A stretch of DNA of 64,000 nucleotides, from the NCBI RefSeq assembly GCF_011386835.1, contig NC_088791.1:26138998-26202997 (forward strand). Direction: 5' to 3'. Source of the stretch: Chrysemys picta bellii. Lineage: Eukaryota; Chordata; Testudines; Emydidae. The notes beneath the pieces were generated by a model. The model searched no databases. It was not told the origin of the DNA and saw only the letters and a program-made list of their open reading frames with translations. Shown here piece after piece: positions 21,661 to 64,000 of this stretch (its first letter is position 1; every line of letters starts with the position of its first letter). The translations under genes were made by a program, and so were the position numbers.

Positions 21661-22589
21661 CAGATCGATCATGTCTGTATTAGTAAGAAGTTCAGAAGAT
21701 CTTTGCAGGACGTTAGAGTTAGAAGAGGAGCAGACGTAGCGTCCGACCATCACTTAGTGGTGGCCAGATTGAAGCTGAAGAAGAACTGGATAGACACGTC
21801 AGATAGAAGAGCGAAGTACAACGTCAGCCTTTTGAAGGATCATAAGATCAAGGAAGATTTTGGACTGACGCTGAAGAATAAGTTTTCGGTACTACAGGAT
21901 CGGTCTGAGGAAGAGGAAGACAGTGTATCCAACAGATGGCAGAAATTGAGAGAGACACTTAGGTCAGCATGCCAGGAAGTGCTTGGAATCAAGAAATACC
22001 AGCAGAAAGAGTGGATCACAGCAGAGACCTTGACTAAGAAGATAGAAAGAAGAAGAAGGCAGTAGTTAATAACAGCAGGATTAGAGCAGCAAAGGCTAAA
22101 GCGCAAGAAGAGTATGCTGAAGCCCATAAAGTAGTGAAGAGGAATATTAGGAAGGATAAGAGAGATTATGTGGATGGACTGGCAGCAGAAACGGAACAGG
22201 CAGCATACAATGGTAATATGAAACAGCTGTATGACATCACCAAGCGACTGTCTGAAAAGTTCAGCAAGCCAGAACGTCCCGTCAAAGACAATCAGGGAAA
22301 GTCTATAACAGAAATAGAACAACAGATGAATAGATGGGCGGAGCACTTTGAGGAACTCCTAAATAGGCCAGCACCAGTAAATCCACCAGACATTGACCCA
22401 GCCAACGAAGACCTTCCAATCAATTGTGATAGACCTACCAGAGATGAGATCAGAAAAGCCATCACTATGATGAAGAACAGGAAGGTGGCTGGACCTGACG
22501 ATATTCCAGCAGAGGCCCTGAAAGTAGATCTGGATGCTTCAGTGGAAATGCTGTACCCCCTTTTGAGAAGATATGGGAAGAAGAAGTGA
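21661..22589 (+). pseudogene. RTE copy 1: end of endonuclease and linker to RT
   Basis: After the SINE the frame continues with DVRVRRGADVASDHHLV, which holds the conserved SDH motif closing the endonuclease domain. A linker rich in Lys and Glu follows. It carries a stop near 22063 with a frameshift, then reopens (22134-22589) and leads into the RT palm with [23 protein letters not shown]. The product cannot be made as one protein. Confidence 0.8.
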
Positions 22590-23953
22590 TTCCGGCAGAC
22601 TGGAAAGAGGGATACCTTATTAAAATCCCCAAGAAAGGAAACCTCAGCAATTGTGCCAACTACAGAGGAATCACACTTCTGTCGGTGCCAGGGAAGATCT
22701 TCAACCGAGTTCTCTTAGAGAGAATGAAGGATGCCGTCGATTCACAGCTACGAGATGAGCAGGCAGATTTCCGGCAAAATGGATCATGCACGGGCCAGAT
22801 AGCAACGCTCCGCGTCATAGTCGAGCAGTCTATGGAATGGAACTCCTCGTTGTACATCAACTTTGTTGACTATGAGAAAGCATTTGATAGCGTGGATCGA
22901 GAGACTCTCTGGAAGCTCCTTCGGCACTATGGCATCCCAGCAAAGGTGGTTAACTTGATTAAGAACTTATATGACGGCATACACTGTAGAGTGATCCATG
23001 GAGGGCAGCTTACAAACAGCTTCCAGGTGCGAACTGGAGTCAGACAAGGATGTTTGTTGTCACCTTTTCTCTTACTCCTTGTCATTGATTGGATTATGAA
23101 GACATCCACTTATGAGCGCAGGAACGGAATCCAGTGGACGCTGTGGACCCAGCTTGATGACCTGGACTTTGCCGACGACCTTGTACTCCTTTCGCATAGC
23201 AAACAGCAGATGCAAGAGAAGACTAACGTAGTGGCAGCCACGTCATCACAGGTTGGCCTCAACATCCACAAGGACAAGACCAAGATCCTCAAGATTAACT
23301 CCATCAGTAATGACCCAGTCACACTAAATGGAAACCCTCTGGAAGAAGTGCAGTCCTTCACCTACCTAGGCGGCATCATCGACCAACAGGGTGGCACGGA
23401 TGCAGACATCAAAGCAAGGATCGGTAAGGCAAGAGCAGCTTTCTTACAGCTCAAGAACATCTGGAGCTCCAGAGAGCTGTCTTTGGCAACAAAGATTAGA
23501 CTGTTCAATTCCAACGTGAAATCAGTCTTATTGTATGGAGCTGAAACCTGGAGGACAACTAAAACAACCACCAGGAAGATCCAGACCTTCATAAATAGTT
23601 GCCTTAGAAGGATTCTCCAGATCCGCTGGCCAGACACCATCAGCAACATCTACCTCTTGGAGAGGACCCGTCAACTTCCAGCAGAGGAAGAAATTAGAAG
23701 GAGAAGGTGGAGCTGGATAGGACGCACACTACGCAAACAGCCAACCAACATCACTAGACAGGCATTGCAGTGGAACCCCCAACGCAAGCGGAAAAGAGGC
23801 CGTCCAAGAAACACCTGGCGATGCGACCTTCAGGCTGATAGCAAAAAAATGGGCTATACCTGGAACCAGCTGGAGAAAATGGCCCAGGATAGGGGACTCT
23901 GGAGATCTGTGGTTGGCGGCCCATACCCCGATTGGGGTGACGGGCATGAGTGA
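22586..23953 (+). pseudogene. RTE copy 1: reverse transcriptase and C-terminal domain (455 codons open)
   Basis: The long open frame contains the RT motifs in order: [32 protein letters not shown] (catalytic Asp, about residues 93-104), RQGCLLSP (153-160) and the FADD box (195-198). Next come the [10 protein letters not shown] region and the RTE-type C-terminus with [10 protein letters not shown] and NITRQALQW. It starts four bases before the stop of the previous frame, so a single frameshift separates it from the linker. The segment is remarkably intact, which argues for a comparatively recent RTE insertion. It ends in GGCATGAGTGAGTG, a short repeat-like tail. Non-LTR RT uses a nicked target to prime cDNA synthesis; this copy lacks its own complete endonuclease. 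Confidence 0.88.
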
Positions 23954-24613: not shown

Positions 24614-24991
24614 GGCCTGGTCTACACTATGAGTTTAGGTCAAATTTAGCAGCTTTAAATCGAATTAACCCTGCACCCGTCCACACAACGAAGCCATTTA
24701 CTTCGACATAAAGGGCTCTTAAAATCGATTTCTGTACTCCTCTCCGACAAGGGGAGTAGCGCCAAAATCGACATTGCCGGTTCGAATTAGGGTTAGTGTG
24801 GATGAAATTTGACGGTATTGGTCTCCGGGAGCTATCCCACAGTGCACCATTGTGACTCTGGACAGCAATCTGAACTTGGATGCACTGGCTAGGTAGACAG
24901 GAAAGGCCCCGCGAACTTTTCAATTTCATTTCCTGTTTGCCCAGCGTGGAGAGCACAGGTGACCACGCAGAGCTCATCAGCACATGTAACC

Positions 24992-25532
24992 ATGCAGTCC
25001 GAGAATCAAAAAAGAGCACCAGCATGGACCATACGGGAGATACTGGATCTGATTGCTATATGGGGAGAGGATTCCATGCTAGCAGAACTACATTCCAAAA
25101 GACAAAATGCCAAAACATTTGAAAAAATCTCCAAGGGCATGATGGAGAGAGGCCACAGTAGGGACTCATATCAGTGCCGTGTGAAAGTTAAGGAGCTCGG
25201 ACAAGCCTATCAAAAAACAAAGGAGGCAAAGGGTCGCTCTGGGTCAGAGCCGCAGACATGCCGCTTCTACACTGAGCTGCATGCAATTCTAGGGGGAGCC
25301 GCCACCACTACCCCACCTCTGACCGTGGATTCCGAGGAGGGGGTAATCTCAGCCATGCCTGAGGATTCTGCGGACGGGAAAGATGATGATGAGGAGGAGG
25401 ATGAGCCTGCGGAGAGCACACAGCACTCCGTTCTCCCCAACAGCCAGGATCTTTTTCTCAGCCTGACTGAAGTACCCTCCCAACCCTCCCAAGGTGGTAT
25501 CCCAGACAATGAGGCCATGGAAGGGACCTCTG
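24992..25532 (+). pseudogene. Harbinger copy 1: Myb/SANT-like protein, exon 1
   Basis: ATG at 24992 (MQSENQKRAPAWT) starts a trihelix/SANT-type DNA-binding domain with the spaced aromatic residues W (PAWT), W (AIWGED), then F (KTFEKI) and Y (DSYQCR), and CRVKVKELGQAYQKTK. An acidic stretch (DDDEEEDEPAEST) and SQDLFLSL follow. In Harbinger elements this protein binds the termini and carries the transposase to the nucleus. The exon ends at a strong donor, TCTG|GTGAGT, in phase 1. Exon 1 itself is intact here. Confidence 0.8.
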
Positions 25533-26514
25533 GTGAGTGTACCTTTGTAAATATAAAACATGGTTTAAAAGCAAGCATTTTTTAATGATTAATTTGCCCT
25601 GAGGACTTGGGATGCATTCGCGGCCAGTACAGCTACTGGAAAAGTCTTTTAACGTGTCTGGGGATGGAGTGGAAATCCTCCAGGGAGATCTCCATGAAGC
25701 TCTCCTGGAGGTACTCCAAAAGCCTTTGCAGACGGTTTCTGGGCAGTCAGCCTTATTCCATCCTCCATGGTAGGACACTTGACCACGCCATGCTAGTAGC
25801 AAGTAATCTGGTATCATTGCATGACAAAGCCTGATACGCTTTGTATAGCGGGACTATACGCTACCATATAGTCCCGGTGTTTGCTGGCATTCAAGCAACA
25901 TCCGTTCTTTATCTCGCTGTGTTATCCTCAGGAGAGTGATATCGTTCATGGTAACCTGGTTGAAATACAGGAATTCAATGAAGGGGACAGAGGTGGCCAT
26001 TCCTACTGGGCTGCTTGCCTGTGGCTGAAAAGAAATCCTTCCCTGCAGGGCGGGGGGGTGGGAGCATTGGTGCTGAGCTTTTCGCGTTTGGCTATCAGGG
26101 ATCTTCCCTGATACCAGTGGGGGGAGGGGTAGAGCGATCATCACACAGAATTGGATGGGTGGTGGGGGGGTTTAGTTTGGTTTCTGCTGCTGCACGTTAA
26201 CAGGAAAACCGCAGCACTCAGTGTGCTTTGCTTAGTATGGGAAAGGAGGGCACTGCTTTTATGAAGTTTGCAGAAGTCAAAAGACAATGGCTTATGATGG
26301 CTGCATGCAAGCTGAATTCTGTTGCCCGGCCCTGCGTCTGATCTCTAACACCAAAGCTGCAGGCACTCAATATAAGATGCAAAATTCGACCTTGTACCGA
26401 AATCACATGTGCTATGTAATGTGAATAGTGTTGTTCACCGTGAAAGAGTATAAGCATTGTTCTGTAAAATGTATCTTTTTAAATACTTCTCTCCCTTTTT
26501 TCCCTCCCTCCCGC

Positions 26515-27237: not shown

Positions 27238-28480
27238 TCAAAGCTTCTCTGATGCGCAGTGCAGCGCTTCCTGGTGTGCTCTTCTAATCACCCTGGTGTC
27301 TGGCTGCGCGTAATCAGCGGCCAGGTGATTTGCTTCAGCCTCCCACCCCACCATAAAGGTCTCCCCCTTATTCTCACAGAGATTGTGGAGCACACAGCAA
27401 GCAGTAATAACAATGGGAATATTGGTTTGGCTGAGGTCTGAGTGAGTCAGTAATGTGCGCCAGTGACCCTTTAAATGTCCAAAGGCACATTCTACCACCA
27501 TTCTGCACTTGCTCAGCCTGTAGTTGAACAGCTCCTGACTCCTGTCCAGGCTGCCTGTGTATGGCTTCATGAGCCATGGCATTAAGGGGTAGGCTGGGTC
27601 CCCAAGGATAACTATAGGCATCTCAACATCCCCAACGGTTATTTTCTGGTCTGGGAAGTAAATCCCTTGCTGCAGCCGTTTAAACAGATTAGTGTTCCTG
27701 AAGACGCGAGCGTCATGAACCCTTCCCAGCCATCCCACGTTGATGTTGGTGAAACGTCCCTTGTGATCCACCAGCGCTTGCAGCTCCATTGAAAAGTACC
27801 CCTTGTGGTTTATGTACTGGCTGCCCTGGTGCTCCGGTGCCAAGATAGGGATATGGGTTCCATCTATCGCCCCACCACAATTAGGGAATGCCATTGCAGC
27901 AAAGCCATCCACTATGACCTGCACATTCCCCTTTGGTAGCAGCAGCTCAGTGATTGCTTTGGCTACTTGTATCACAGCAGCTCCCACAGTAGATTTGCCC
28001 ACTCCAAATTGATTACCGACTGACCGGTAGCTGTCTGGCGTTGCAAGCTTCCTATCGCCACTCACGTCTCAACTGTGAGGGCTGCTCTCATCTTGGTATT
28101 CTGGCGTTTCAGGGCAGGGGAAAGCAAGTCACAAAGTTCCATGGAAGTACCCTTACACATGCAAAAGTTTCGCAGCCACTGGGAATCATCCCACACCTGC
28201 AACACTATGCGGTCCCACCAGTCTGTGCTTGTTCCGGGCCCAGAATCAGCGTTCCACGGCTAGAACCTGTCCCATTAACAACATGATCTCCAAAGCGCCG
28301 GGGCCCGCGGTTTGAGAGAATTCTGTGTCCATGTCCTCATCACTCTCATCACCGCGCTGCAGTCGCCGCCTCCTCCTCCTCACCTGGTTTTGCAGGTTCT
28401 GGTTCAGCATAAACTGCACGATAATGCGTGAGGTGTTTACAATGTTCATGACTGCTGTCTTGAGTTGAGCGGGCTCCATG
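27238..28480 (-). pseudogene. Harbinger copy 1: DDE transposase (HARBI1-like), broken N-terminus
   Basis: The catalytic part is open from 28065 to 27238: it has GGAIDGTHIPI (first Asp), RVHDARVF (second Asp), VILGDPAYPLMPW and VECAFGHLKGHWR (Glu), the DDE triad of the Harbinger DDE_4 family. The natural start is farther upstream, MEPAQLKTAVMNIVN at 28479. Between the two lie a TGA near 28247, a frameshift, another TGA near 28069, and a deletion of about 8 nt just before KLATPDSYRSVGNQ. The frame at 28065 opens with GTG, not a credible start. The enzyme would cut and paste DNA at TTA sites; this copy cannot make it intact. Confidence 0.85.
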
Positions 28481-52201: not shown

Positions 52202-52638
52202 CAGCTGCAAATTTTTCAAGCCTCCCTCTTCCGTTCCAAAGGCTATCTCAGATAAGGCGTCGGAAAAAGAAGACACGAGACGAGATGTTCGCGGAAATCA
52301 TGGAATCCACCTGCAGTGAAAGAGCTCATCTGAATGAGTGGAAGGACACGGTTTCAAAGTATAGGAAAGATGCCAGTGAATGTGAGGACAGGAGGGACCA
52401 ACGTGAGGACAGGAGGGACCAACGTGAGGACAGGAGGGATGCTCGAGATGAGAGGTGGTGGCAGGAAGATCAGAGGAGGCAGGATGCAACGCTGGGGCTG
52501 CTGCATGAGCAAACAGACATGCTCTGGCGTCTGATGGAGCTTCAGGAACGGCAGCAGGATAACAGAGTGCCGCTACAGCCCCTGTATAACCCCCTTCCCC
52601 TCTCACCATGTTCCATAGCCTCCTCACCAGACGTGTAA
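52202..52638 (+). pseudogene. Harbinger copy 2: Myb/SANT-like protein, exon 2 (intact)
   Basis: The acceptor CTTCCAG at 52195-52201 is intact. In phase with the exon 1 donor the exon reads AANFSSLPLPFQRL, a basic run (RRRKKKTRDEMF), SERAHLNEWKDTV, and then three tandem EDRRD(QR) units at about 52384-52446 that are single in copy 1. It continues with LLHEQTDMLWRLMELQERQQ and stops after SSPDV. The basic helix and leucine-rich coiled coil fit a role in nuclear import and dimerisation, which is inference. Confidence 0.75.
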
Positions 52639-54970: not shown

Positions 54971-55957
54971 TGTTACCTCAAGGGGAAGAAGGTAACGCTT
55001 CAAAGGAAATACTAGAGAGATGGTAGAGGGAAGATATAACAGGGAAAGCCCCTTTTCTCAGAGGCTGCAGACTCGGCTCCCTTCCGTGTCTGTCACCGGT
55101 GGTCTTAGCTACCCATAAAATATAATAAAATAAAGAAAAGACAAGATAATATGGTGCAAATAAAGGTAAGTGTATTAGGGATAAAAGGTACAGAGAAACT
55201 AGGGAAAATGGGGGGGAGAAATACAAGAATAACAGTGAAACAGCAAAACCATAAATCAGTAAAATAGTGGATCAGTGACTGACTGAGAGCTTGAAGCTCA
55301 GGCCCATAAACCCTCCCGTGGGATTCTACAAAACAATAAACAATACCCCAACACGGAAACCTTTCTCCTATTGCTCTGATGCAGCAGATGTCACGTACAG
55401 GCGTGATGCCCAGGACCTACAACTCTTGGACTGATTTAGAGTCCTTGAGGAGGAACACTGGGGAGTCCAGACGACTGATGGTTTTCGTCGCTGGCGAGGA
55501 GACCCTCTGGGATGATGGACACCAGGAGATGCAGGATATAGGAATGATGATGACAGGACTCCTCTTCCTCAAACACACTACGGGATAGATGTTGTTCTTC
55601 GATCTCAGCTCTGGAGCTCTGCGAAGACCCGACCGTGTACGAACTGTCGCTGGAATGGACAGCCCCGCACAGGCGCTGAACAAGACCTTATAAAGCCTTT
55701 TTGGCGGGAAGAGTTCTGAGGTGATGGAATGCTTCTGAGGTGATGGAATGCTGAGGGTTGGATTTGGCGGGAAAAACCGGTTCTGACTGGTTTAAGCTAG
55801 AGTCTGTGTAGCAAAATAAGTCCCCTCTCAGAGATGGAGTTCAAAGTTAGAGTTCATGTACTCCATTTTGAATTTCAGTTTTAAAGTCAGTGATTCACTT
55901 CAGTATTTTAAAAACATCTTATTAATAGCTAAGTGAAACAGTACATTTCATCTAACA
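54971..55957 (-). repeat. 3' LTR of the provirus
   Basis: The LTR starts TGTTAGATG after a polypurine tract (55957) and ends GGTAACA (54971), so the ends form a 5-bp TGTTA/TAACA inverted repeat; it is 987 bp long. A TATA-like CTTTATAAGG lies at 55697-55688. Upstream of it are two E2F-like sites (TTTGGCGGGAA at 55700-55710 and TTTGGCGGGAAA at 55763-55774 on plus) around a 19-bp tandem duplication (55714-55732, 55733-55751). The region after the TATA box is about 700 bp, unusually long for R-U5. I see no canonical AATAAA or ATTAAA in it on the coding strand. Confidence 0.88.
55714..55751. repeat. 19-bp tandem duplication in U3
   Basis: TTCTGAGGTGATGGAATGC occurs twice in direct succession. In retroviral U3 regions such duplications often act as enhancer repeats. 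The two units are identical, so the duplication is recent or under constraint. Confidence 0.9.
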
Positions 55958-55970
55958 TATCCCCTCCTTG
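55958..55970 (-). promoter_or_regulatory. Polypurine tract of the provirus
   Basis: AAGGAGGGGATA on minus lies directly before the LTR start TG. This is the standard plus-strand primer for reverse transcription. Confidence 0.85.
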
Positions 55971-56067
55971 GGACCTTTTTCCTTAACTATGGACAAAAGG
56001 TTCCAAACAATTTAATACAACATCAAACATTAATAACATGAATTACAACAATGCATATGATAAATAT

Positions 56068-58785
56068 TTACAGAGCATTCCAACCAGAAATATTGAAAGG
56101 AACTTGTTTATACTTTCTCCTTGCTTTCTTATGTTTACATATTAACACAGTTAACATAACCATGTACACAATTAGAATGAATTGAATAATTAAAACAACC
56201 ACAACTGGATGTAGAAGAATATACCACATTGATCTTATACTTCCCATGTCGGTATACAGGATAGATTCCCACCAATGAGCAGAGGTGGTTTCATCCTTAA
56301 TCTTTTTTGTAATTTGTTTAATCTTGGAGATAGAATGTTGCACAGTGAGAATAGTTTTACTTCCTTCCAATTTCAAATTATTCAAATACTGAGCTAATTT
56401 TTCATGGTGTAACAACTTTTGAATAACCTCCAGATTTGCTCCAACATGGATGGGTGTTAACGTATTGTACAATTTATATTCATTGAACATTTCTTTGATA
56501 TATACATTATGTACGGATACATTGATATCACAACCCATTAACTGTATGACCTTACATATACATAAATTTCCTATTCCTGAATTATTAACTTTATACAAAT
56601 TATTAACTAAGAAATATGGACATAAACTTCGGATACAAAAACAACCAGAATTCACTTGTACTATGGCAGAGGCTTTACTGAGGGAATGGTGAAACACTTC
56701 ATAAGAGCAAGTTCCCTCTACAGGGTCTAGACACGTGGAATCCTCCTCCCACACTTGGGTAGTGCAGGTATATCCCAAGTTGGGTTGATAGACGCATGCT
56801 TGCAGATTTATAGGGACGTACGAATTATTAGCGTTAACATGTACCCATTTATGTTCTTCTATAGGGACTAGTAGGGACTGGTTAGCATATATCCCCAAAG
56901 CAACAAGAGGATATATGGTTTCTTGATTAGCTGATTTTAAAGTAAGAATCAAGGCCATGATCGTATCATTGTGCTGGAAGTAAGTGAATGTCAATAATTG
57001 CCACCATTGGTGATGTATTTTCTCAAAATCATTGGCGTCCTCGTAGATGATTTTCTTCAATTCCAAAGGTAACTGCTGGTTAAAACCATCTCTGATGATA
57101 GCCTTGGCTACCATTATCAACCATTGCTGAGCTTCTACACATGCTAGGGCTTCTGAGATATTAGATTGGAGAATATCTAATGCTCCCAGTATTCGCAGGT
57201 GGTCTTGCTCTTGAATTTTAAGCCAATATGGAAGAATTTTAGTGATGTCAAATGTTGTAGTTCCTAGAGCGTGAAATGCAGAAGTCAATGGTTCGGCAAG
57301 GGAGGCGGCATCATGACCTACCTGACCAATTCGATTTGCTAGTATTTGTTGGTCTACTGTATTTAATACGCTTAATCCAGCTCCAATTCCCCCTAGCACC
57401 TTTGCCACTAAATCACGTTTCTGCCTAGTAGATGAGTTGGAAGAAGGAGGGAGTACTCCTTGAACCCAGGCTCTCCATCCTACTAAAAGTGGCTCTGTAT
57501 ATAGGGTACATTGATTATATACTGATGCTATAGATAATTGTAGAGGCATGATAATCCTTTTGATTGAATATTGAGGATCTATCATTAAAGTTCTGGTTAC
57601 GTCCTTTTTAATGGTTAGTGGTCCTACATGATAAATGGGAGGTGGCGTTACCACATGTATTTCCTTTGTATATTCAAACTCCAGCGGGCCTCTCACAGTC
57701 CATATTCCAGAATGATTGACCATAACATTTATAGTATAATTAATTACACACAATTCCCTGAATTTATTTATATCATTGTCCGATATACAATATCTTGAGG
57801 TAGTATGTTGTTTCAATGAAATGTTATAGCCCAACAAAGAGGAATTACAGGTTAATCTTAATATGGTAGTATTCTGATTAGGAGGTTTTATGGAAATATT
57901 TACAAAATCTATATGGGTTTGTTGATGGTACATTTTTATGGATATGTTCAATTTTCCGGGTTTAACTAAAGAAGGAGATAAGATGTCAAATGATACACAT
58001 TGATAAAGGTCTTTATGGCAGTTGTCAAACATCACTTCAGGCATACTCCACGTACAACCATATCCTGGACGTATAGGTCCAAAACGCTGTACTGGGTTGT
58101 GGGTGGTAACAGTATCAGGTAATATAACCGACTGATTCTGAGCATACTCAAAAACATCTAGGTAGCAACGTTCCATGACCTTATAAGCTCTAAGGGTTAC
58201 CCATTCCCAATTTTTATGATCGTTTGCCTCTCTTTTCCCTCTTCCGTGATAGCCAATTCTGAAAACATTAACTGGTTTTTTAGTAGTCGCTCGAGGTACC
58301 GTTGTTGTACTACTTTTTGTAGAGCTTTCTTGTTGTTTTCTTTGTATTTGACGTCTTCTTGTATTTGGTGGGATTTTATTCCTCCATCGATATATTATTT
58401 GTGGGTTAACCTGACATTCTAAATATTCGTTCATCTTGACAGGAAAGAATTTACTTCCTTTCAGAGTTACATTGAAAGTTGGTGGTAAATCCCGTTTCCT
58501 CCGGCGTCTGTAAATATCCTCTGGAAATGGCTTTGTAGGAGCTTCAGGTGGTGCCATTCCTTCCATTTGAGTGTTGGTTCTTTCATTGACATATTCCTCA
58601 TTTTCCTTTTGTGTTTCCAATTCCTTCCCTTGGTCATACATGAAAGATATTTTTCTGTATGTCTTACATATCCAGTATTCATTTTTCTTAATTATTAAAC
58701 TTCTACAGGTCCATAAACTTAACCAAGTTATAACTATGTACATCAGAAATTTTCCAGTAGTCTTCATATTTCCTTTGTTCGGCAT
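56068..58785 (-). CDS. env: Retroviral envelope glycoprotein (905 aa, complete)
   Basis: ATG 58785 follows a splice acceptor by one base. There is a hydrophobic segment at about residues 11-31 with a short N-terminal tail, then a leader of about 98 residues ending at RRRRKR (93-98). A second basic site, GRGKR, lies at 181-185. RQKR at 454-457 separates the surface part from the transmembrane part, which begins DLVAKVLGGIGAG, a fusion-peptide-like Gly/Ala-rich stretch. The transmembrane subunit is 448 residues long, cysteine-rich (residues 664-752), lacks CX6CC, has a Trp-containing membrane-proximal region (HWWES, 837-841), one membrane anchor (about 857-882) and a short basic tail. Many NxS/T sites are present. 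The leader/SU/TM plan with a cleaved leader resembles foamy-virus Env. A relation to the Ovex1/percomORF type of vertebrate env should also be tested. No premature stop. Confidence 0.92.
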   Translation of the reverse strand: MPNKGNMKTTGKFLMYIVITWLSLWTCRSLIIKKNEYWICKTYRKISFMYDQGKELETQKENEEYVNERTNTQMEGMAPPEAPTKPFPEDIYRRRRKRDLPPTFNVTLKGSKFFPVKMNEYLECQVNPQIIYRWRNKIPPNTRRRQIQRKQQESSTKSSTTTVPRATTKKPVNVFRIGYHGRGKREANDHKNWEWVTLRAYKVMERCYLDVFEYAQNQSVILPDTVTTHNPVQRFGPIRPGYGCTWSMPEVMFDNCHKDLYQCVSFDILSPSLVKPGKLNISIKMYHQQTHIDFVNISIKPPNQNTTILRLTCNSSLLGYNISLKQHTTSRYCISDNDINKFRELCVINYTINVMVNHSGIWTVRGPLEFEYTKEIHVVTPPPIYHVGPLTIKKDVTRTLMIDPQYSIKRIIMPLQLSIASVYNQCTLYTEPLLVGWRAWVQGVLPPSSNSSTRQKRDLVAKVLGGIGAGLSVLNTVDQQILANRIGQVGHDAASLAEPLTSAFHALGTTTFDITKILPYWLKIQEQDHLRILGALDILQSNISEALACVEAQQWLIMVAKAIIRDGFNQQLPLELKKIIYEDANDFEKIHHQWWQLLTFTYFQHNDTIMALILTLKSANQETIYPLVALGIYANQSLLVPIEEHKWVHVNANNSYVPINLQACVYQPNLGYTCTTQVWEEDSTCLDPVEGTCSYEVFHHSLSKASAIVQVNSGCFCIRSLCPYFLVNNLYKVNNSGIGNLCICKVIQLMGCDINVSVHNVYIKEMFNEYKLYNTLTPIHVGANLEVIQKLLHHEKLAQYLNNLKLEGSKTILTVQHSISKIKQITKKIKDETTSAHWWESILYTDMGSIRSMWYILLHPVVVVLIIQFILIVYMVMLTVLICKHKKARRKYKQVPFNISGWNAL

Positions 58786-58806
58786 CCTGTGGATGAAAAC
58801 AAGACA
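58786..58806 (-). promoter_or_regulatory. Predicted env splice acceptor
   Basis: TTGTCTTGTTTTCATCCACAG on minus is a good polypyrimidine tract and AG ending at 58787, followed by G and the env ATG. It would place the env start at the very 5' edge of the subgenomic exon. The donor would lie in the 5' leader beyond the window. Confidence 0.75.
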
Positions 58807-58818
58807 ATTAGTTGATCC

Positions 58819-61800
58819 TTATGGTGGTTTTTCATCACTTGTTCTATTACTTTCTGTTCTAGGTGGATTAGTACAGATGTTTCCTTTCCATAATTTTAAT
58901 TGTGAGCTATGGAACCACTTTTGTACTTTACGTTTTCCGGTCTTCAATTCTAGTTGATAAGTTGTTGGACTGGCTTTATTGATGATAGTTACTGGTCCAA
59001 CCCATCTTGGACTTAATGGATGGTTCTTTTCAGAAAAATACTTAAAGAGAACTTGATCCCCTATGTTCCACTCTAAATGTTTTAAATTGTTATTCAGTCT
59101 TTGATCCATCTTATGAATATTTCCTTTTAAATTAACCGCCACTGCCCTTTGCACTTCTGATATGGTATTTAACACTGATTTTATGTAATTGTCCGTCACC
59201 ATTCTAGGTTTATACTCGTCCGGTGGTACCCCTCCTGGCATCCACCATTGCTCAGGCGTTACCATAGGTCTTCCGAAAAGTGCTTCATATGGAGTGAATC
59301 CATGGACGCTCACTGTGGATCTGATTGCCATCAGGATGAGAGGTAGATGTCTGTCCCAATTCTTTCCTGATGAATCAATTACCTTCCTTAGTGCAGTCTT
59401 TAAAGTGCGGTTTGATCTTTCTACTAACCCAGAAGCTTGTGGGTGACCAGCTACATGAAATCTTTGGCGTATTCCTAAGGCTATACACAATTGTTTAGTT
59501 AATTCTCCGGTAAAGTGCGTGCCTTGATCGGAATCAATAATTCGAGGTAGTCCGAATCGACTGAACGTATTTTCTAACAGCAATTTTACTGTCGCACCTG
59601 CAGTGCAATTCCTAGTTGGGTACCCTTCTATCCACTTGGTAAATGGATCTATTACTACCAGGCAGTATACATTTCCTCGGTTAGTTCTAGGTAAGGGTCC
59701 AATAAAGTCTATCTGCACTCGAATCCATGGGCCATCTACCGGTTGATGAAGTAGAGGTCCCTTTTTTATCCTTATATCAGGATTATTGTGGGCGCATCTT
59801 AAACAGTTGTTAATAAAGTGCTCAGTATCTCGGATTATCTCAGGCCACCATCCTACCGTAGCTAGCCTTTGTAGAGTCTTTTGGAGTCCAAAGTGTCCTT
59901 GTTGATGAGCCAGTTGGATTAACTCTCTTCGCAATATGTTTGGAATCACTAATAGTGGAATCAAGGTATCGTTATCAGTATTTTCATAATTGTCTTTTGT
60001 TGCCATAATTAGTCCAGATGTATGTCGAGTGATGAGGTATGTTTTGTGTTTTCCATCTTTTAGCAGCTTCTTAATTTCAGGATCTTGTTCTTGCAATTGT
60101 ACTATATCTTGATGATCTGTATGGTCCACAGGTTTATTTGCACTTATATTAGCTTCTACCTTGTCCCATCTTGTTTCAGGTCCCATTACCGCTGCTTGCT
60201 TTGCTAACTTATCCACTTTGCTGTTTAATATGGATATCTCTGCCTGATTCCTTCTGTGTGCTCTTACTTTGAATAGATAAGTATCTCCCCTCCTAGCTTC
60301 TGCTAAGTTCCATGCATGCATGAGATAGCCAGCATATGCCACCGGATGATTATCTGCGGATTTCATATCCCGCTGTTTCCATACTATCATCCAGTCTAAC
60401 AAGGCTCTCATAGCCCAATCAGAGTCTGTACAGATGGTGATATTGGCAGTCGATTCAGCATTTTCTAAAGCCACTATGATTGCCACAACTTCAGCCGCTT
60501 GTGCAGAATGGTATGACACGGTTCCTTGATAGATCTTGTCCGAAGCGACATGAAGTGCTGCATATCCGGTAGCAGCCTTCCCATCTTTAAAAAGGCTACT
60601 GCCATCGACTACCCATAATTCTCTGTTACTGGCTTTTGCATTTTCATAGCATGATTCAAGTTTAAAGGGGGATACAATTTCTGGAATTTTGATGTTAGGT
60701 AGAGGACAATCATGATTATTTATATATATTTCCTCAGTTATTGGCGGGCAAAGTGCGAAAGGTGCAGAAATAGGTGTGTTGATCTTCTCTACTTGTACCT
60801 CTTTATTCAGGAGGGCAAGTGTCCAATTGGCAAGTCTAGGGTGGCTGACTCGCCCTGCATTAGCTTTACCTGATATGACATATTGCACTGGTGTATGGGT
60901 GGTTTTTAGTACAATAGGGGCCATTCCTATTAAATACTCCCAATGGGAGATGGCCCAAACTAATGCAAGTACTTCCTTTTCGCACGTTGTATACTGTTTT
61001 TCTACTTCTGAAAGGACCTTAGATCCATATGCCACTGGTTTTAAGGAGGATCCACTCTGTTGTAATAATATTGCACTAATCGCCGTCTTGGTTGTTGCCA
61101 GTTGTAGATGGAAGGGCTGGTTGATTTGAGGGTATGCAAGTGCCGGTGCAGTCATCAAGGCTTGTTTCAGGTCTATCACTGCTTGCTGCTCTTCAGTTCC
61201 CCAAGTCCATTTTTGATTTTTCCTTAAAAGTTTATAGAGAGGTCTGGCCTTTTCGCTATAGTTTTCGATAAAATCCCTTGAAAATCCAACCAATCCAAGG
61301 AATGATCGTAAAGTGCTTACATCTGTCGGGGCAGGCAGCTTAGATATGAGTTCTATTCTCGAAATATCCGGTTTTCTGCCTGTGGGTCCAAGCTGAACTC
61401 CCAAGTAAGTCACTTGCTGCTGGACCAACTGAGCCTTGCTAGGATTGATTAAGAATCCAGCTTTTTTCAATGCTTCCAGAACCTCATCTAAAGCAGCACA
61501 ATTATCTTCTCTGGTCTGTGTGGCAATTAGGATGTCATCTACGTAACTTATGATGTTGCTGGAATAAGTCAGATTCTTCCACAGGGCGGCCACCAACCGA
61601 TGGCACAGACTTGGGGCGTTATGATAGCCTTGTGGGACCCTGGTGAAGGTTAGCTGTCGGTCATCAAAAGTAAAAGCAAACTTGTAAAACGAAGAAGGGT
61701 GGAGAGGTATTGAAAAGAATGCATTTGAAATGTCCAATACAGAAAACCAACAGGCACCTTCTGTGATTAAAGCCATCACCTCAGGGAATTTTGCCACTAC

Positions 61801-62595
61801 AGGAGCTAGTCTTGGGGTAACATGATTTAACCCTCTATAATCAACAGTAAGTCTCCATGATTTATTATCTGCCTTCCTAACAGGCCAAATAGGCGAATTG
61901 CATATGCTTTGGCATTGGATTAGCACTCCTTGCTCTAAAAGTGCATCGATGGTTGGTTTAATTCCCTCCTTTGCCTCGATGGAATACTTATACTGTCTTA
62001 GTGGTTTGGGGTCTGGTCCTTCTACCTTCACAGAAGCCTCTACTTTTCCACAACTGAGTTTAGTTGGAGCGAAAACCATGAGATGTTTCTGGGTAATCAG
62101 TTTGATGTCCTCTTCCCATTCAGGAAGAATCAGTTTATCTGGCGTCTTAAACGCATATATCCTATGGGCTGCTGGAATTATAAGACCCGCCTCTTCATCT
62201 TTCACTTGACACAATATGTTATTTGGTAAGTCCACCACTATCTGTAATTTCCTTAATAGATCTATTCCCAAGATGCCACTTCCGTCTAATTGTTGTAAAC
62301 CGAAGGAAGCTTGGGTTGACAGATGTCCTACAGAACAAGTAATAAAATCAGTGAAAGGTATAGTACTTTCCTTTCCATTGTATGACTGAAGAGATTTAAT
62401 ATCCTTAACTGGAATATTCCTGATGATTGAATTTGCTTTTGTGCAAAGTAGGCTGGTAGATGCCCCGGTGTCTACCAATGCCTTTTGTTTAATGCTACCG
62501 AAACTTCCCTTTAATTGAATTTCTACAGTGGGTCTACCCCAGTAGTCGTTAACTAGGGGGGCCACAAACCCAGGGGCTTGGGAAGCCCGGCCACC
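58819..62595 (-). CDS. pol: Retroviral Pol (protease, RT, RNase H, integrase)
   Basis: It is in the same frame as gag, directly after the gag UGA, and uninterrupted to 58819. Numbering residues from 62565: protease VDTGAS at 31-36 and GILGIDLL at 97-104; RT with VLDISNAFF (Asp 278), VPQGYHNAPS and YVDDILI (341-344); a tether; RNase H with VVDGSS (Asp 654), Glu 692, TDSD (Asp 714) and KVDKLAKQ (Asp 785). Integrase has the zinc site H887-H891-C921-C924, catalytic Asp 953 (QIDFIG), Asp 1013 (SDQG) and Glu 1049 (LVERSN), with exactly 35 residues between the last two, then a GPY/F-like WVGPVTI and YQLEL at 1188-1206. All catalytic residues are present. Pol has no start codon of its own (GTG at 62565 is only a Val codon), so it should be made as Gag-Pol. 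The domain order and GPY/F module suggest gamma/epsilon affinity. Confidence 0.95.
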   Translation of the reverse strand, partial: GGRASQAPGFVAPLVNDYWGRPTVEIQLKGSFGSIKQKALVDTGASTSLLCTKANSIIRNIPVKDIKSLQSYNGKESTIPFTDFITCSVGHLSTQASFGLQQLDGSGILGIDLLRKLQIVVDLPNNILCQVKDEEAGLIIPAAHRIYAFKTPDKLILPEWEEDIKLITQKHLMVFAPTKLSCGKVEASVKVEGPDPKPLRQYKYSIEAKEGIKPTIDALLEQGVLIQCQSICNSPIWPVRKADNKSWRLTVDYRGLNHVTPRLAPVVAKFPEVMALITEGACWFSVLDISNAFFSIPLHPSSFYKFAFTFDDRQLTFTRVPQGYHNAPSLCHRLVAALWKNLTYSSNIISYVDDILIATQTREDNCAALDEVLEALKKAGFLINPSKAQLVQQQVTYLGVQLGPTGRKPDISRIELISKLPAPTDVSTLRSFLGLVGFSRDFIENYSEKARPLYKLLRKNQKWTWGTEEQQAVIDLKQALMTAPALAYPQINQPFHLQLATTKTAISAILLQQSGSSLKPVAYGSKVLSEVEKQYTTCEKEVLALVWAISHWEYLIGMAPIVLKTTHTPVQYVISGKANAGRVSHPRLANWTLALLNKEVQVEKINTPISAPFALCPPITEEIYINNHDCPLPNIKIPEIVSPFKLESCYENAKASNRELWVVDGSSLFKDGKAATGYAALHVASDKIYQGTVSYHSAQAAEVVAIIVALENAESTANITICTDSDWAMRALLDWMIVWKQRDMKSADNHPVAYAGYLMHAWNLAEARRGDTYLFKVRAHRRNQAEISILNSKVDKLAKQAAVMGPETRWDKVEANISANKPVDHTDHQDIVQLQEQDPEIKKLLKDGKHKTYLITRHTSGLIMATKDNYENTDNDTLIPLLVIPNILRRELIQLAHQQGHFGLQKTLQRLATVGWWPEIIRDTEHFINNCLRCAHNNPDIRIKKGPLLHQPVDGPWIRVQIDFIGPLPRTNRGNVYCLVVIDPFTKWIEGYPTRNCTAGATVKLLLENTFSRFGLPRIIDSDQGTHFTGELTKQLCIALGIRQRFHVAGHPQASGLVERSNRTLKTALRKVIDSSGKNWDRHLPLILMAIRSTVSVHGFTPYEALFGRPMVTPEQWWMPGGVPPDEYKPRMVTDNYIKSVLNTISEVQRAVAVNLKGNIHKMDQRLNNNLKHLEWNIGDQVLFKYFSEKNHPLSPRWVGPVTIINKASPTTYQLELKTGKRKVQKWFHSSQLKLWKGNICTNPPRTESNRTSDEKPP

Positions 62596-62598
62596 TCA
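62574..62598 (-). promoter_or_regulatory. Gag-pol UGA readthrough site with downstream hairpin
   Basis: Gag ends AAT-TGA-GGT. Seven bases after the UGA, GGGCTT (62588-62583) and AAGCCC (62579-62574) form a six-pair stem with a CCC loop, and downstream GGG and GGCC could extend it or pair with the loop. Gag and pol are in one frame. The spacing resembles the gammaretroviral stop-codon readthrough signals. No frameshift motif is needed. Confidence 0.8.
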
Positions 62599-63999
62599 AT
62601 TAGATTGGAGTGAGGTAGATGCTATAGGAGCATTAGAGTTCTTACTTGCTGATCCTTGTGATGTTTCATATTGTGCTAATTTCAGGAACATGTCTTCTGC
62701 TGATAACCTCTGCTTCACTAGACTGTCCCATGATTCATATTTGCTGAGTCTTTTTAATAGCACCTTTTTCATGATTTTCATTTCCTCAGCAGAGCCACTG
62801 AACATTTTGTTAGTAAATTCTGGGGGTTTATATTGTTGCTGCATTGGAGTTTTGCCTTGGCTTTTATCGGTAGAGGTTTTGTTATTGAAAGCTGCCACCC
62901 TTTTCTTAGCTCCTCCACCAGGGTAGGCTAGCTGTTGTAACTCGTAAACCTCTCTAGCCCTGCCTTCTAATTCAGCCATAGGTGTAACACGAGCAACCAC
63001 AGGACCCATTCCCAACCGGATATTAGGTGTTAAACCTTGTACATATAATTCTCTTAATTCAGGTACGTCATAATCAATAACCCCTCCACGGTTGACTCCC
63101 AAACCAGCTAACCAGAATAACAATTTTTTTCGCATCATATACCTTTCTGGTCGTTCCTCTGGCATTTGCTTTTCAGCATATGCTTTACCCAGTAGGTTGT
63201 CATAAGGAAAATACAATTTAAAAACACACTTATATATGGTATGTTGTTCAGTATTGGTATCCACCATGATGCCATATGGTAATACTGCAAAATCCTCAGC
63301 TGACATGCATTCCCTTAAGAGTGCTACCATATCCTCCTGGCTGACATTAGGTGTTGCTGATAATTTTGCCAGCCAGTTCAATACCGTTTCCTTATTACAA
63401 ATTCCCATTTGCTTTCCCAAAGCTCTAGTTTGTTCCGGGGTCAAAGCCCTAGTTTCATGTTTCACAGTTGGGGGTCTGTTGTTATCATATTGGGTTACAG
63501 TGGTTACAATAGGGGCCAACGGGCATCCCCTGTCTACCAACATGGCCTCCTCACTACTGTGAGGTGCTGAGGGTTCCAATCTTTTACCCACTGAGGGACC
63601 TGGTGGTGAGTCCTCAGTTTCCGAGTCGGAACTTGACTCTTGAAATTCGGACTTAAAAGCTGCCAAAGGATTCATTTCGATGGCACTCATAACACCCTTG
63701 GCCAATTGTAGCTGCTTCTGCAGCTTGTCAATGCGGCGATTGCAGGCCACATGATTGACAGACCCTAAATTAACATTATGGGCTTCCTTCAGGAGCTGGC
63801 GCACTACTGCCTGCGATTCCTGAAGTTCTCTGCCTTTTATTTCAGCAGCAGTTTCTGCATCTGTAACCCTCGTATTAAGATTCCTCAGCTGTTGTTCGAG
63901 CTGGGAAACCTGTAAGGTCAGGCTATTTATTTTGGCAGTTGCCAGTTGCTCTTCGGCAGCCTGCCTTTCACCTTGTTGTTTTAGCTGCTGCTTCTCAAC
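62596..63999 (-). CDS. gag: Retroviral Gag, 5' end outside the window
   Basis: The frame is open from the window edge to the UGA at 62598-62596, 467 codons. The first 100 or so visible residues are heptad-like and Gln/Glu/Leu-rich, a long coiled coil. A PSAP motif (EPSAPHSS, about 63573-63562) would recruit TSG101 for budding. A capsid follows with an MHR-like segment (KQMPEERPERYMMRKKL, about 63168-63118). The C-terminus is Lys- and Ser-rich (KNKTSTDKSQGK type, SQGSASKNSN) and contains no CX2CX4HX4C knuckle; only scattered single cysteines occur. GTG at 63804 is not the start, as the frame stays open upstream. It would form the virus core; RNA binding must rely on basic residues. Confidence 0.92.
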   Translation of the reverse strand, partial: VEKQQLKQQGERQAAEEQLATAKINSLTLQVSQLEQQLRNLNTRVTDAETAAEIKGRELQESQAVVRQLLKEAHNVNLGSVNHVACNRRIDKLQKQLQLAKGVMSAIEMNPLAAFKSEFQESSSDSETEDSPPGPSVGKRLEPSAPHSSEEAMLVDRGCPLAPIVTTVTQYDNNRPPTVKHETRALTPEQTRALGKQMGICNKETVLNWLAKLSATPNVSQEDMVALLRECMSAEDFAVLPYGIMVDTNTEQHTIYKCVFKLYFPYDNLLGKAYAEKQMPEERPERYMMRKKLLFWLAGLGVNRGGVIDYDVPELRELYVQGLTPNIRLGMGPVVARVTPMAELEGRAREVYELQQLAYPGGGAKKRVAAFNNKTSTDKSQGKTPMQQQYKPPEFTNKMFSGSAEEMKIMKKVLLKRLSKYESWDSLVKQRLSAEDMFLKLAQYETSQGSASKNSNAPIASTSLQSN

Positions 64000-64000
64000 A

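What the first reader, a model, noticed from the sequence alone, without database searches (positions are those of the whole stretch)
54971..64000. Young turtle provirus combining gamma/epsilon-like Gag-Pol layout with a foamy-like Env plan
Seen: open gag, pol and env, one in-frame UGA between gag and pol, a GPY/F-type integrase end, a Gag with coiled coil and no zinc knuckle, and an Env with a cleavable leader of about 98 residues and a 448-residue TM. Known: UGA/UAG readthrough in one frame is a gamma/epsilon trait; a knuckle-less Gag and a furin-cleaved Env leader are foamy-virus traits. Inference: this may belong to a poorly described or recombinant retroviral lineage. It could equally be a recently named reptile lineage that I cannot check.
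Basis: partly seen in the sequence, partly recalled or inferred. Interest (0 to 1): 0.9.

Follow-up and report, generated by a model that had tools for sequence, protein, structure and literature searches.

The report
Turtle OVEX1-like endogenous retrovirus, partly inside window
A turtle chromosome carries a retrovirus whose genes, as far as the window shows them, are still open, and it belongs to the same lineage as OVEX1, an old virus relic kept by birds whose enzymes look dead; it is a well-preserved member of a known but little-studied group, and nothing found here makes it a foamy-virus hybrid.

Summary
The sequence observations hold. On the minus strand the window carries a 3' LTR (54971-55957), an env ORF, an intact pol ORF and the 3' part of gag. 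Gag and pol share a frame, split by one UGA. Gag has a coiled coil and no zinc knuckle. Env has a furin-type site ending a 98-residue leader and a 448-residue TM. The 5' LTR and gag start lie beyond the window, so age could not be measured directly.

The 'gamma layout plus foamy Env' reading is not supported. Pol is 43-48% identical over 96-98% of the query to 15 bird-clade proteins with the published marks of OVEX1. RT and integrase trees both place it in an OVEX1/turtle clade (100/99 and 99/94). Its Gag motif matches the printed OVEX1 motif at 13 of 20 positions. Turtle rows plus gammaretroviruses are rejected; a deep link with foamy virus is not. Same-frame stop suppression with a knuckle-less Gag is already published (OVEX1, XtERV-S).

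Env found four relatives, the three named ones all turtles, and no curated Pfam match. Its leader lacks the foamy WxxW motif and long cytoplasmic part. Fold tests failed on confidence. Verdict: new, well-preserved member of a known lineage, with an unexplained Env.

The parts
54971..55957 (-). 3' LTR, 987 bp, TGTTA...TAACA ends; TATAA at 55692 with two exact 19-bp direct repeats just upstream of it (55714-55752); no AATAAA or ATTAAA found on the coding strand; holds two stop-to-stop frames of 124 and 103 codons without a Pfam match
55960..55969 (-). polypurine tract AAGGAGGGGA, two bases before U3
56068..58785 (-). env reading frame from Met12 (905 aa); the stop-to-stop frame is 56068-58818
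   Evidence: relatives
58787..58807 (-). candidate env splice acceptor: pyrimidine-rich tract ending CAG, one base before the env ATG
   Evidence: sequence read by eye; use of the site is inferred
58699..58746 (-). hydrophobic, signal-peptide-like segment of Env (residues about 25-40)
   Evidence: by eye; aligned with the N-terminal hydrophobic segments of P0002 (unnamed) and P0004 (Pelodiscus); no signal-peptide predictor was run
58492..58785 (-). Env leader, 98 residues, ending in the furin-type site RRRRKR (58492-58509)
57415..58491 (-). Env SU (residues 110-468), with a second furin-type site RGKR at 58231-58242
57415..57426 (-). SU/TM furin-type site RQKR, followed by DLVAKVLGGIGAGLS (fusion-peptide-like, by eye)
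56071..57414 (-). Env TM, 448 residues: cysteine-rich middle (LQACV..YTCTT..GC.CIRSLC), membrane anchor near residues 868-893
   Evidence: helix and strand outline only from the low-confidence models
58819..62595 (-). pol, 1258 aa: PR-RT-tether-RNase H-IN, intact YVDD and D-x59-D-x35-E, no dUTPase match
62239..62538 (-). protease region (Pfam RVP 17.3 bits, under its cut-off of 20.7; LVDTGAS active site)
61390..61881 (-). reverse transcriptase core (RVT_1)
60190..60618 (-). RNase H (second, active-type domain after the tether)
58894..59946 (-). integrase: HHCC, DD35E core, SH3-like end with W-V-G-P-V
62596..62598 (-). UGA between gag and pol, same frame
62596..63999 (-). 3' part of gag (467 codons plus stop); start lies beyond the window
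63859..63942 (-). strongest coiled-coil stretch of Gag (residues 20-47 of the visible part)
63115..63174 (-). major homology region EKQMPEERPERYMMRKKLLF, 13 of 20 identical to the OVEX1 motif printed in PMC2717909

Best explanation
It is a well-preserved endogenous retrovirus of the OVEX1/SpeV-like lineage (avian and reptilian, in print neither class I nor class II) in a turtle, probably an emydid. It most likely works as a simple retrovirus. Full-length RNA makes a coiled-coil Gag without zinc knuckles. Occasional reading of the UGA as an amino acid makes Gag-Pro-Pol. A singly spliced RNA, joined just before the env ATG, makes an Env that enters the ER through an ordinary N-terminal signal peptide, is cut by furin-like proteases between SU and TM, and probably also once or twice in its N-terminal part. 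Shown by sequence: reading frames, stop, motifs, LTR and lineage. Inferred: readthrough, splicing, signal peptide, cleavage, fusion and recent insertion.
For: Pol hits (84 proteins): P0005 62%, Emydura 56%, Struthio 48%, the 14 other bird-clade rows 43-46%, at 96-98% of the query. Of these 15 rows, 15 carry the degraded RT active site, 15 WFVDG[SC]N, 15 the Asp-to-Glu change in IN, 15 W[ML]GPVR[VI], 14 FSDS and 8 the exact MLIDTGASYSIL; these are marks printed for OVEX1. The window keeps YVDD and DD35E. RT tree, 57 rows: window with P0005, P0006 and P0027 at 97/96, inside a 22-row OVEX1 clade at 100/99. IN tree, 48 rows: the same grouping at 99/94. RT identity to the 15 rows is 48.2-56.9%, above the 42% printed for OVEX1 and its then closest relative SpeV. 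MHR 13 of 20 identical, best of 500 gag shuffles 8. The published OVEX1 plan is the same: same-frame stop suppression, coiled coil, no zinc finger, no dUTPase, large env-like ORF without CX6CC.
Against: No crocodilian, SpeV, SnRV or ERV4 reference could be put in the trees, so the exact name inside this group is open. RT identity does not separate sharply: a frog row reaches 49.1%, inside the OVEX1 range. OVEX1 ORF3 is described as partly class I-like and no bird Env came up, so Env may differ between window and OVEX1; but the profile search also missed P0002-P0004, members of its own query, so its silence says little. RNA folding just after the UGA is no better than shuffles (z -0.60). The 5' end is unseen. 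The AU test does not reject the whole lineage being sister to foamy virus (p 0.53, that tree being slightly the better one), nor turtles plus foamy virus without OVEX1 (p 0.109).
Confidence: 0.8

Rival explanations
1. It is a member of ERV4 (Chong 2014), the class described from crocodilians, Pelodiscus and Chrysemys, rather than of the OVEX1 cluster.
For: ERV4 lacks zinc fingers, GPF/Y and dUTPase, keeps env and occurs in Pelodiscus and Chrysemys (Chrysemys being an emydid is recalled). The window shares the lack of zinc fingers and dUTPase and has relatives in Pelodiscus and Terrapene.
Against: In that paper OVEX1 clusters with CrocERV37-39, among groups left unplaced and apart from ERV4, and overall Pol similarity inside ERV4 is only 0.347, while the window is 43-48% identical to OVEX1 Pol and 48-57% in RT. 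No ERV4 sequence was available here.
Confidence: 0.2
2. Recombinant: gamma/epsilon-type Gag-Pol with a foamy-derived Env.
For: Same-frame UGA, furin-bounded leader, long TM.
Against: A turtle-plus-gamma clade is rejected (p 6e-27; groups named after the tree was seen). Gag has an MHR, which foamy Gag lacks. The leader has no WxxW and only about 13 residues before its hydrophobic segment, against about 60 cytoplasmic residues in foamy virus. No Pfam foamy Env match at E up to 1.
Confidence: 0.05
3. The Env is an F-like fusion protein as in lokiretroviruses, captured separately from the Gag-Pol.
For: TM length, cysteine-rich middle and the absence of any orthoretroviral Env match leave it open; lokiretrovirus Envs resemble Mononegavirales fusion proteins.
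Against: No Pfam fusion-glycoprotein match at E up to 1 in any of 4 members; RT and IN fall with OVEX1.
Confidence: 0.1
4. A host-kept (co-opted) locus like OVEX1 itself, open because the host selects it.
For: Open frames; a 96% identical Env in Terrapene; the bird relative is conserved as a gene.
Against: LTR and catalytic residues are intact, unlike OVEX1. Env residues 39-197 differ from Terrapene at 16 of 159 sites against 20 of 719 in residues 198-916 (Fisher p 1.7e-4; the signal segment, 0 of 13, was left out), more like a virus than a conserved gene.
Confidence: 0.07

Closest known systems
OVEX1 (chicken, zebra finch in print; here 15 bird-clade Pol proteins)
   Same: Gag-stop-Pol in one frame, coiled-coil Gag without zinc finger, MHR, PR-RT-RNase H-IN, W.GPV end, no dUTPase, large env-like ORF after pol, Pol 43-48% identical
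   Different: OVEX1 is old, lacks full LTRs, has ruined RT and IN sites, an amber stop, an ORF3 in another frame and with class I-like parts; the window has an LTR, intact active sites, UGA, env in the gag-pol frame and an Env whose relation to ORF3 is unknown
SpeV (tuatara) and CrocERV37-39
   Same: Reported in print to cluster with OVEX1 (PMC4299795, PMC2717909, sections read)
   Different: No sequence available here; not compared
ERV4 (crocodilians, Pelodiscus, Chrysemys)
   Same: No zinc finger, no dUTPase, env kept, turtle hosts
   Different: Described as distinct from OVEX1; no sequence available here
XtERV-S (Xenopus, class III)
   Same: Gag and pol in one frame split by TGA, no zinc finger (PMC8278194, passages)
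   Different: Class I Env (title); its domain table lists a dUTPase
Foamy viruses (Spumaretrovirinae)
   Same: No zinc knuckles, furin-bounded N-terminal Env segment, coiled coil in Gag
   Different: Foamy Pol comes from its own spliced RNA, Gag lacks an MHR, leader is a type II membrane protein with WxxW (PMC7828637, passages)

Membership tests
OVEX1/SpeV-like lineage | RT groups with OVEX1 | tested here: met
   22-row clade 100/99
OVEX1/SpeV-like lineage | IN groups with OVEX1 | tested here: met
   21-row clade 99/94
OVEX1/SpeV-like lineage | Same-frame gag stop, coiled-coil Gag, no zinc finger, OVEX1-type MHR | tested here: met
   the first part of Gag is outside the window
OVEX1/SpeV-like lineage | Env related to OVEX1 ORF3 | tested here: inconclusive
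   Two word-limited searches found 4 and 1 proteins, none named as a bird's; even missed three members of its own query; ORF3 sequence not available
OVEX1/SpeV-like lineage | Grouping with SpeV and CrocERV37-39 | not testable with these tools
   No such sequences found
ERV4 | RT inside the ERV4 clade | not testable with these tools
   No sequence labelled ERV4 among the hits
ERV4 | 5 bp target-site duplication | not testable with these tools
   Other flank beyond the window
Gammaretrovirus | RT with MLV and relatives | tested here: not met
   AU p 6e-27 for turtles plus gamma
Gammaretrovirus | CX6CC TM motif | tested here: not met
Epsilonretrovirus | RT with fish epsilon-like rows | tested here: inconclusive
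   Separate in the tree, but lineage plus gamma/epsilon-like rows without frogs not rejected (p 0.349); no named epsilonretrovirus in the set, 'epsilon-like' is my label
Spumaretrovirinae | Separate Pol, not Gag-Pol | tested here: not met
   Pol follows the gag UGA directly in frame; a separate pol RNA cannot be excluded from sequence; foamy trait from passages
Spumaretrovirinae | No MHR in Gag | tested here: not met
   MHR present
Spumaretrovirinae | Leader of 120-130 aa with about 60-aa cytoplasmic part and WxxW | tested here: not met
   98 aa, about 13 residues before the hydrophobic segment, no WxxW
Spumaretrovirinae | RT with foamy virus | tested here: inconclusive
   Not in the tree, but foamy plus whole lineage not rejected (p 0.53), turtles plus foamy p 0.109; one long foamy row only
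Spumaretrovirinae | Accessory genes after env | tested here: inconclusive
   Only 110 bases between env stop and LTR; two frames of 124 and 103 codons inside the LTR have no Pfam match
Lokiretroviruses | RT outside canonical retroviruses with Odin; F-like Env | not testable with these tools
   No reference sequences; Pfam gave no fusion-protein match

The most novel reading that the evidence does not exclude
The lineage whose best-known relic is the bird gene OVEX1 survived in turtles with intact enzymes and carries an Env family of its own, unlike any catalogued retroviral Env; in one turtle branch that Env gained an extra furin-bounded N-terminal module (possibly by partial duplication of the N-terminal NEYW-C unit) that diverges about three to four times faster than the rest and may face the receptor or the host's antibodies.
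Probability: 0.35. Interest if true: 0.6.

Novelty: new member of a known kind. Interest (0 to 1): 0.42.

Why it matters
[quoted passage not shown] A relative with intact active sites gives a yardstick for what OVEX1 lost and kept, and a source for testing what its Gag does. It also shows that several 'NYNRIN-like' annotations in birds, a turtle and a frog are retroviral Pol of this or a neighbouring lineage. The orphan Env is the part worth a structure.

Tried and rejected
Lokiretrovirus as first guess: the RT and IN trees went with OVEX1, though no lokiretrovirus could be included. Scans of viral contigs with Pol, a Pol alignment and an Env alignment: 23, 49 and 54 pattern matches, none confirmed. 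PDB sequence search with Env: one chance-level match (E 1.8) and none with the profile. Two structure predictions of Env: mean pLDDT 33.0 and 31.5, so no fold search was run. RNA structure after the UGA: z -0.60, 51 of 200 shuffles as good. Leader as a tandem duplicate: score 54 against a shuffled mean of 26.5, 0 of 1000 as high; with the NEYW.C motif masked, 72 of 1000 as high, and DNA similarity no longer than 13 bases, so only suggestive. The first unit resembles the N-terminus of P0002 and P0004 (3 and 21 of 1000 shuffles as high), the second less so (273 and 31 of 1000). Gag against the 88 fetched proteins, which were found as Pol or Env: no hit at E up to 1. No other copy of the LTR or proteins in window 1-54900 at E up to 1e-3. 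Rows dropped: of 88 candidate RT rows (84 hits, window, 3 references), 4 had under about 200 aligned RT residues or none and 27 more were left out by hand, mostly gypsy-type, leaving 57; the IN tree used the same hand list and dropped matches of 140 residues or fewer, leaving 48. Group labels gamma, fish and frog are mine; two of the four 'frog' rows (P0028, P0030) are unnamed.

Literature: of PMC2717909, PMC4299795, PMC6001957 and PMC9040795 I read sections; of PMC10435555, PMC7828637, PMC8278194, PMC5006616, PMC12582503, PMC12440569, PMC3758190 and PMC4131045 passages; none in full. No report of an intact OVEX1-like turtle provirus was seen in the listings, which show the best-ranked papers only; supplements were not readable, and the consensus sets of the 2014 and 2018 papers may well hold it.
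Full report
What is there. The element lies on the minus strand and enters the window from the right edge. Read 5' to 3' it shows the 3' part of gag (467 codons), a UGA, pol (1258 aa), UAA, env (916 codons stop to stop), a polypurine tract and a 987-bp 3' LTR with TGTTA...TAACA ends. All three genes are in one frame (the pol frame starts at 62595 and the env frame at 58818, 3777 bases apart, a multiple of three). A pyrimidine-rich tract ending in CAG stands one base before an ATG at 58785, so a spliced env RNA starting at Met12 is the natural reading (by eye, inferred). Between the env stop and the LTR only 110 bases remain; two frames of 124 and 103 codons inside the LTR have no Pfam match.

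Pol. Pfam finds RT, RNase H-like tether and RNase H, integrase zinc, core and SH3-like domains above their cut-offs, with the protease just under its own. The active sites LVDTGAS, YVDD and D963-x59-D1023-x35-E1059 are intact. The best relatives (84 proteins) are an unnamed sequence (62%), Emydura (56%), partial Pelodiscus and Pelusios proteins (57% and 51%), then bird-clade proteins, six of them named, most as NYNRIN-like (43-48%), three unnamed rows with intact motifs (P0016, P0022, P0023, 44-46%), then two frog and two unnamed rows (35-37%).

The bird-clade proteins are OVEX1. Of 15 rows, 15 have the ruined RT active site, 15 the Asp-to-Glu integrase change, 15 WFVDG[SC]N, 15 W[ML]GPVR[VI], 14 FSDS and 8 the exact protease motif printed in the OVEX1 paper; at least four of the seven without the last are cut short or differ by one or two letters there. 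Outside the 15, FSDS also occurs in P0028, and the E-x59-D-x35-E spacing (14 of 15) also matches the window and P0023, so those two marks are weak. Six of the 15 carry a bird name (Struthio, Ciconia, Grus, Heliangelus, Melanerpes, Willisornis); the other nine are unnamed contigs placed by sequence.

Trees. In the RT tree (57 rows, 300 columns) the window joins P0005 (97/94), then Emydura and Pelusios (97/96), inside a 22-row OVEX1 clade (100/99); the frog-type rows are next (96/87) and foamy virus stands elsewhere at weak support (88/69). In the integrase tree (48 rows, 234 columns) the same rows group at 99/94; there P0026 joins them (96/81) but the other three frog-type rows go with fish and gamma rows (95/95), and foamy integrase sits on a long branch near gypsy rows. 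AU tests, on groups named after the tree was seen, reject turtles with gammaretroviruses (p 6e-27). They do not reject foamy virus as sister of the whole lineage (p 0.53, likelihood slightly higher), turtles with foamy virus (p 0.109), or the lineage with gamma/epsilon-like rows without frogs (p 0.349). So membership in the OVEX1 clade is firm and the deep place among retroviruses is open. RT identity of the window is 48-57% to the 15 rows, 60-68% to the turtle and P0005 rows, 41-49% to frog-type rows, 39% to MLV, 38% to foamy virus and 31% to Ty3.

Gag. The visible part has no CCHC box and five scattered cysteines, a strong heptad block, and EKQMPEERPERYMMRKKLLF, identical at 13 of 20 positions to the OVEX1 major homology region; the best match in 500 shuffles was 8. 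Foamy Gag lacks this region.

Readthrough. Gag and pol are contiguous in frame across the UGA. OVEX1 (amber) and XtERV-S (TGA) have the same plan in print. The RNA after the stop folds no better than shuffles, so readthrough is inferred from layout alone.

Env. Relatives found: Terrapene triunguis (96% over the whole protein), two Pelodiscus proteins and an unnamed one, 34-38%. A profile search returned only the Terrapene protein, but it also missed three members of its own query, so it is no evidence of absence. Of four members scanned, only the window piece matched anything in Pfam at E up to 1, three families far under their cut-offs. Furin-type sites end at residues 109, 196 and 468. P0002 and P0004 begin with a plain hydrophobic segment followed by ENEYW or ENDYW; the window has the same order (hydrophobic segment, then KKNEYWIC), followed by about 100 extra residues bounded by furin-type sites that those two lack; P0003 is a fragment without this part. 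So the leader looks like an ordinary signal peptide plus an added module. A foamy leader has about 60 cytoplasmic residues with WxxW before a membrane span, against about 13 here and no WxxW. The module repeats the NEYW-C motif (0 of 1000 shuffles as high), but masking the motif leaves 72 of 1000, so duplication is only suggestive. Against Terrapene, residues 39-197 differ at 16 of 159, residues 198-916 at 20 of 719 (p 1.7e-4); the signal segment (0 of 13) was left out of the test.

Placing it. Same-frame suppression, coiled-coil Gag without fingers, no dUTPase and a large env-like ORF are the published OVEX1 description. Print also groups OVEX1 with tuatara SpeV and CrocERV37-39 and describes ERV4 from crocodilians, Pelodiscus and Chrysemys. 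ERV4 remains the main naming rival. A 2018 survey had a reptile group within its SnRV-related clade Huo and found no foamy-related clade in reptiles and birds. The element is therefore a well-preserved member of a known, thinly described lineage.

Age. Without the second LTR, youth rests on open frames: 7923 coding bases without a stop, expected 3.4 new stops at 1% neutral divergence.

Noticed in passing
P0007 (Struthio camelus): The ostrich protein carries most OVEX1 marks, including the ruined RT and IN sites (its protease part is missing), and branches first among the 15 bird-clade rows (the rest at 100/96 in the RT tree), so the insertion seems to predate the ratite split that the 2009 paper left open.
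   Followed up: partly
P0006 to P0026: Databases name several OVEX1-lineage Pol proteins of birds, a turtle and a frog 'NYNRIN-like'; therian NYNRIN carries a retroelement-derived integrase part, and whether that came from this lineage was not tested.
   Followed up: no
window 22586-23953 (+): 455-aa ORF with a reverse transcriptase domain (RVT_1 and DUF6451), by eye of non-LTR type.
   Followed up: partly
window 24959-25585 (+) and 27238-28065 (-): A Myb/SANT-like ORF and a DDE_Tnp_4 transposase ORF on opposite strands, the pair expected of a PIF/Harbinger element (label recalled).
   Followed up: partly
window 55714-55752: Two exact 19-bp direct repeats in the U3 part of the LTR just upstream of the TATAA, possibly an enhancer repeat.
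   Followed up: no
window 55105-55791 (-): Two adjoining stop-to-stop frames of 124 and 103 codons inside the LTR on the coding strand, without a Pfam match.
   Followed up: partly
window 52382-52439: A 21-bp minisatellite, 2.8 copies at 100% match, inside a 173-aa ORF without a Pfam match.
   Followed up: no
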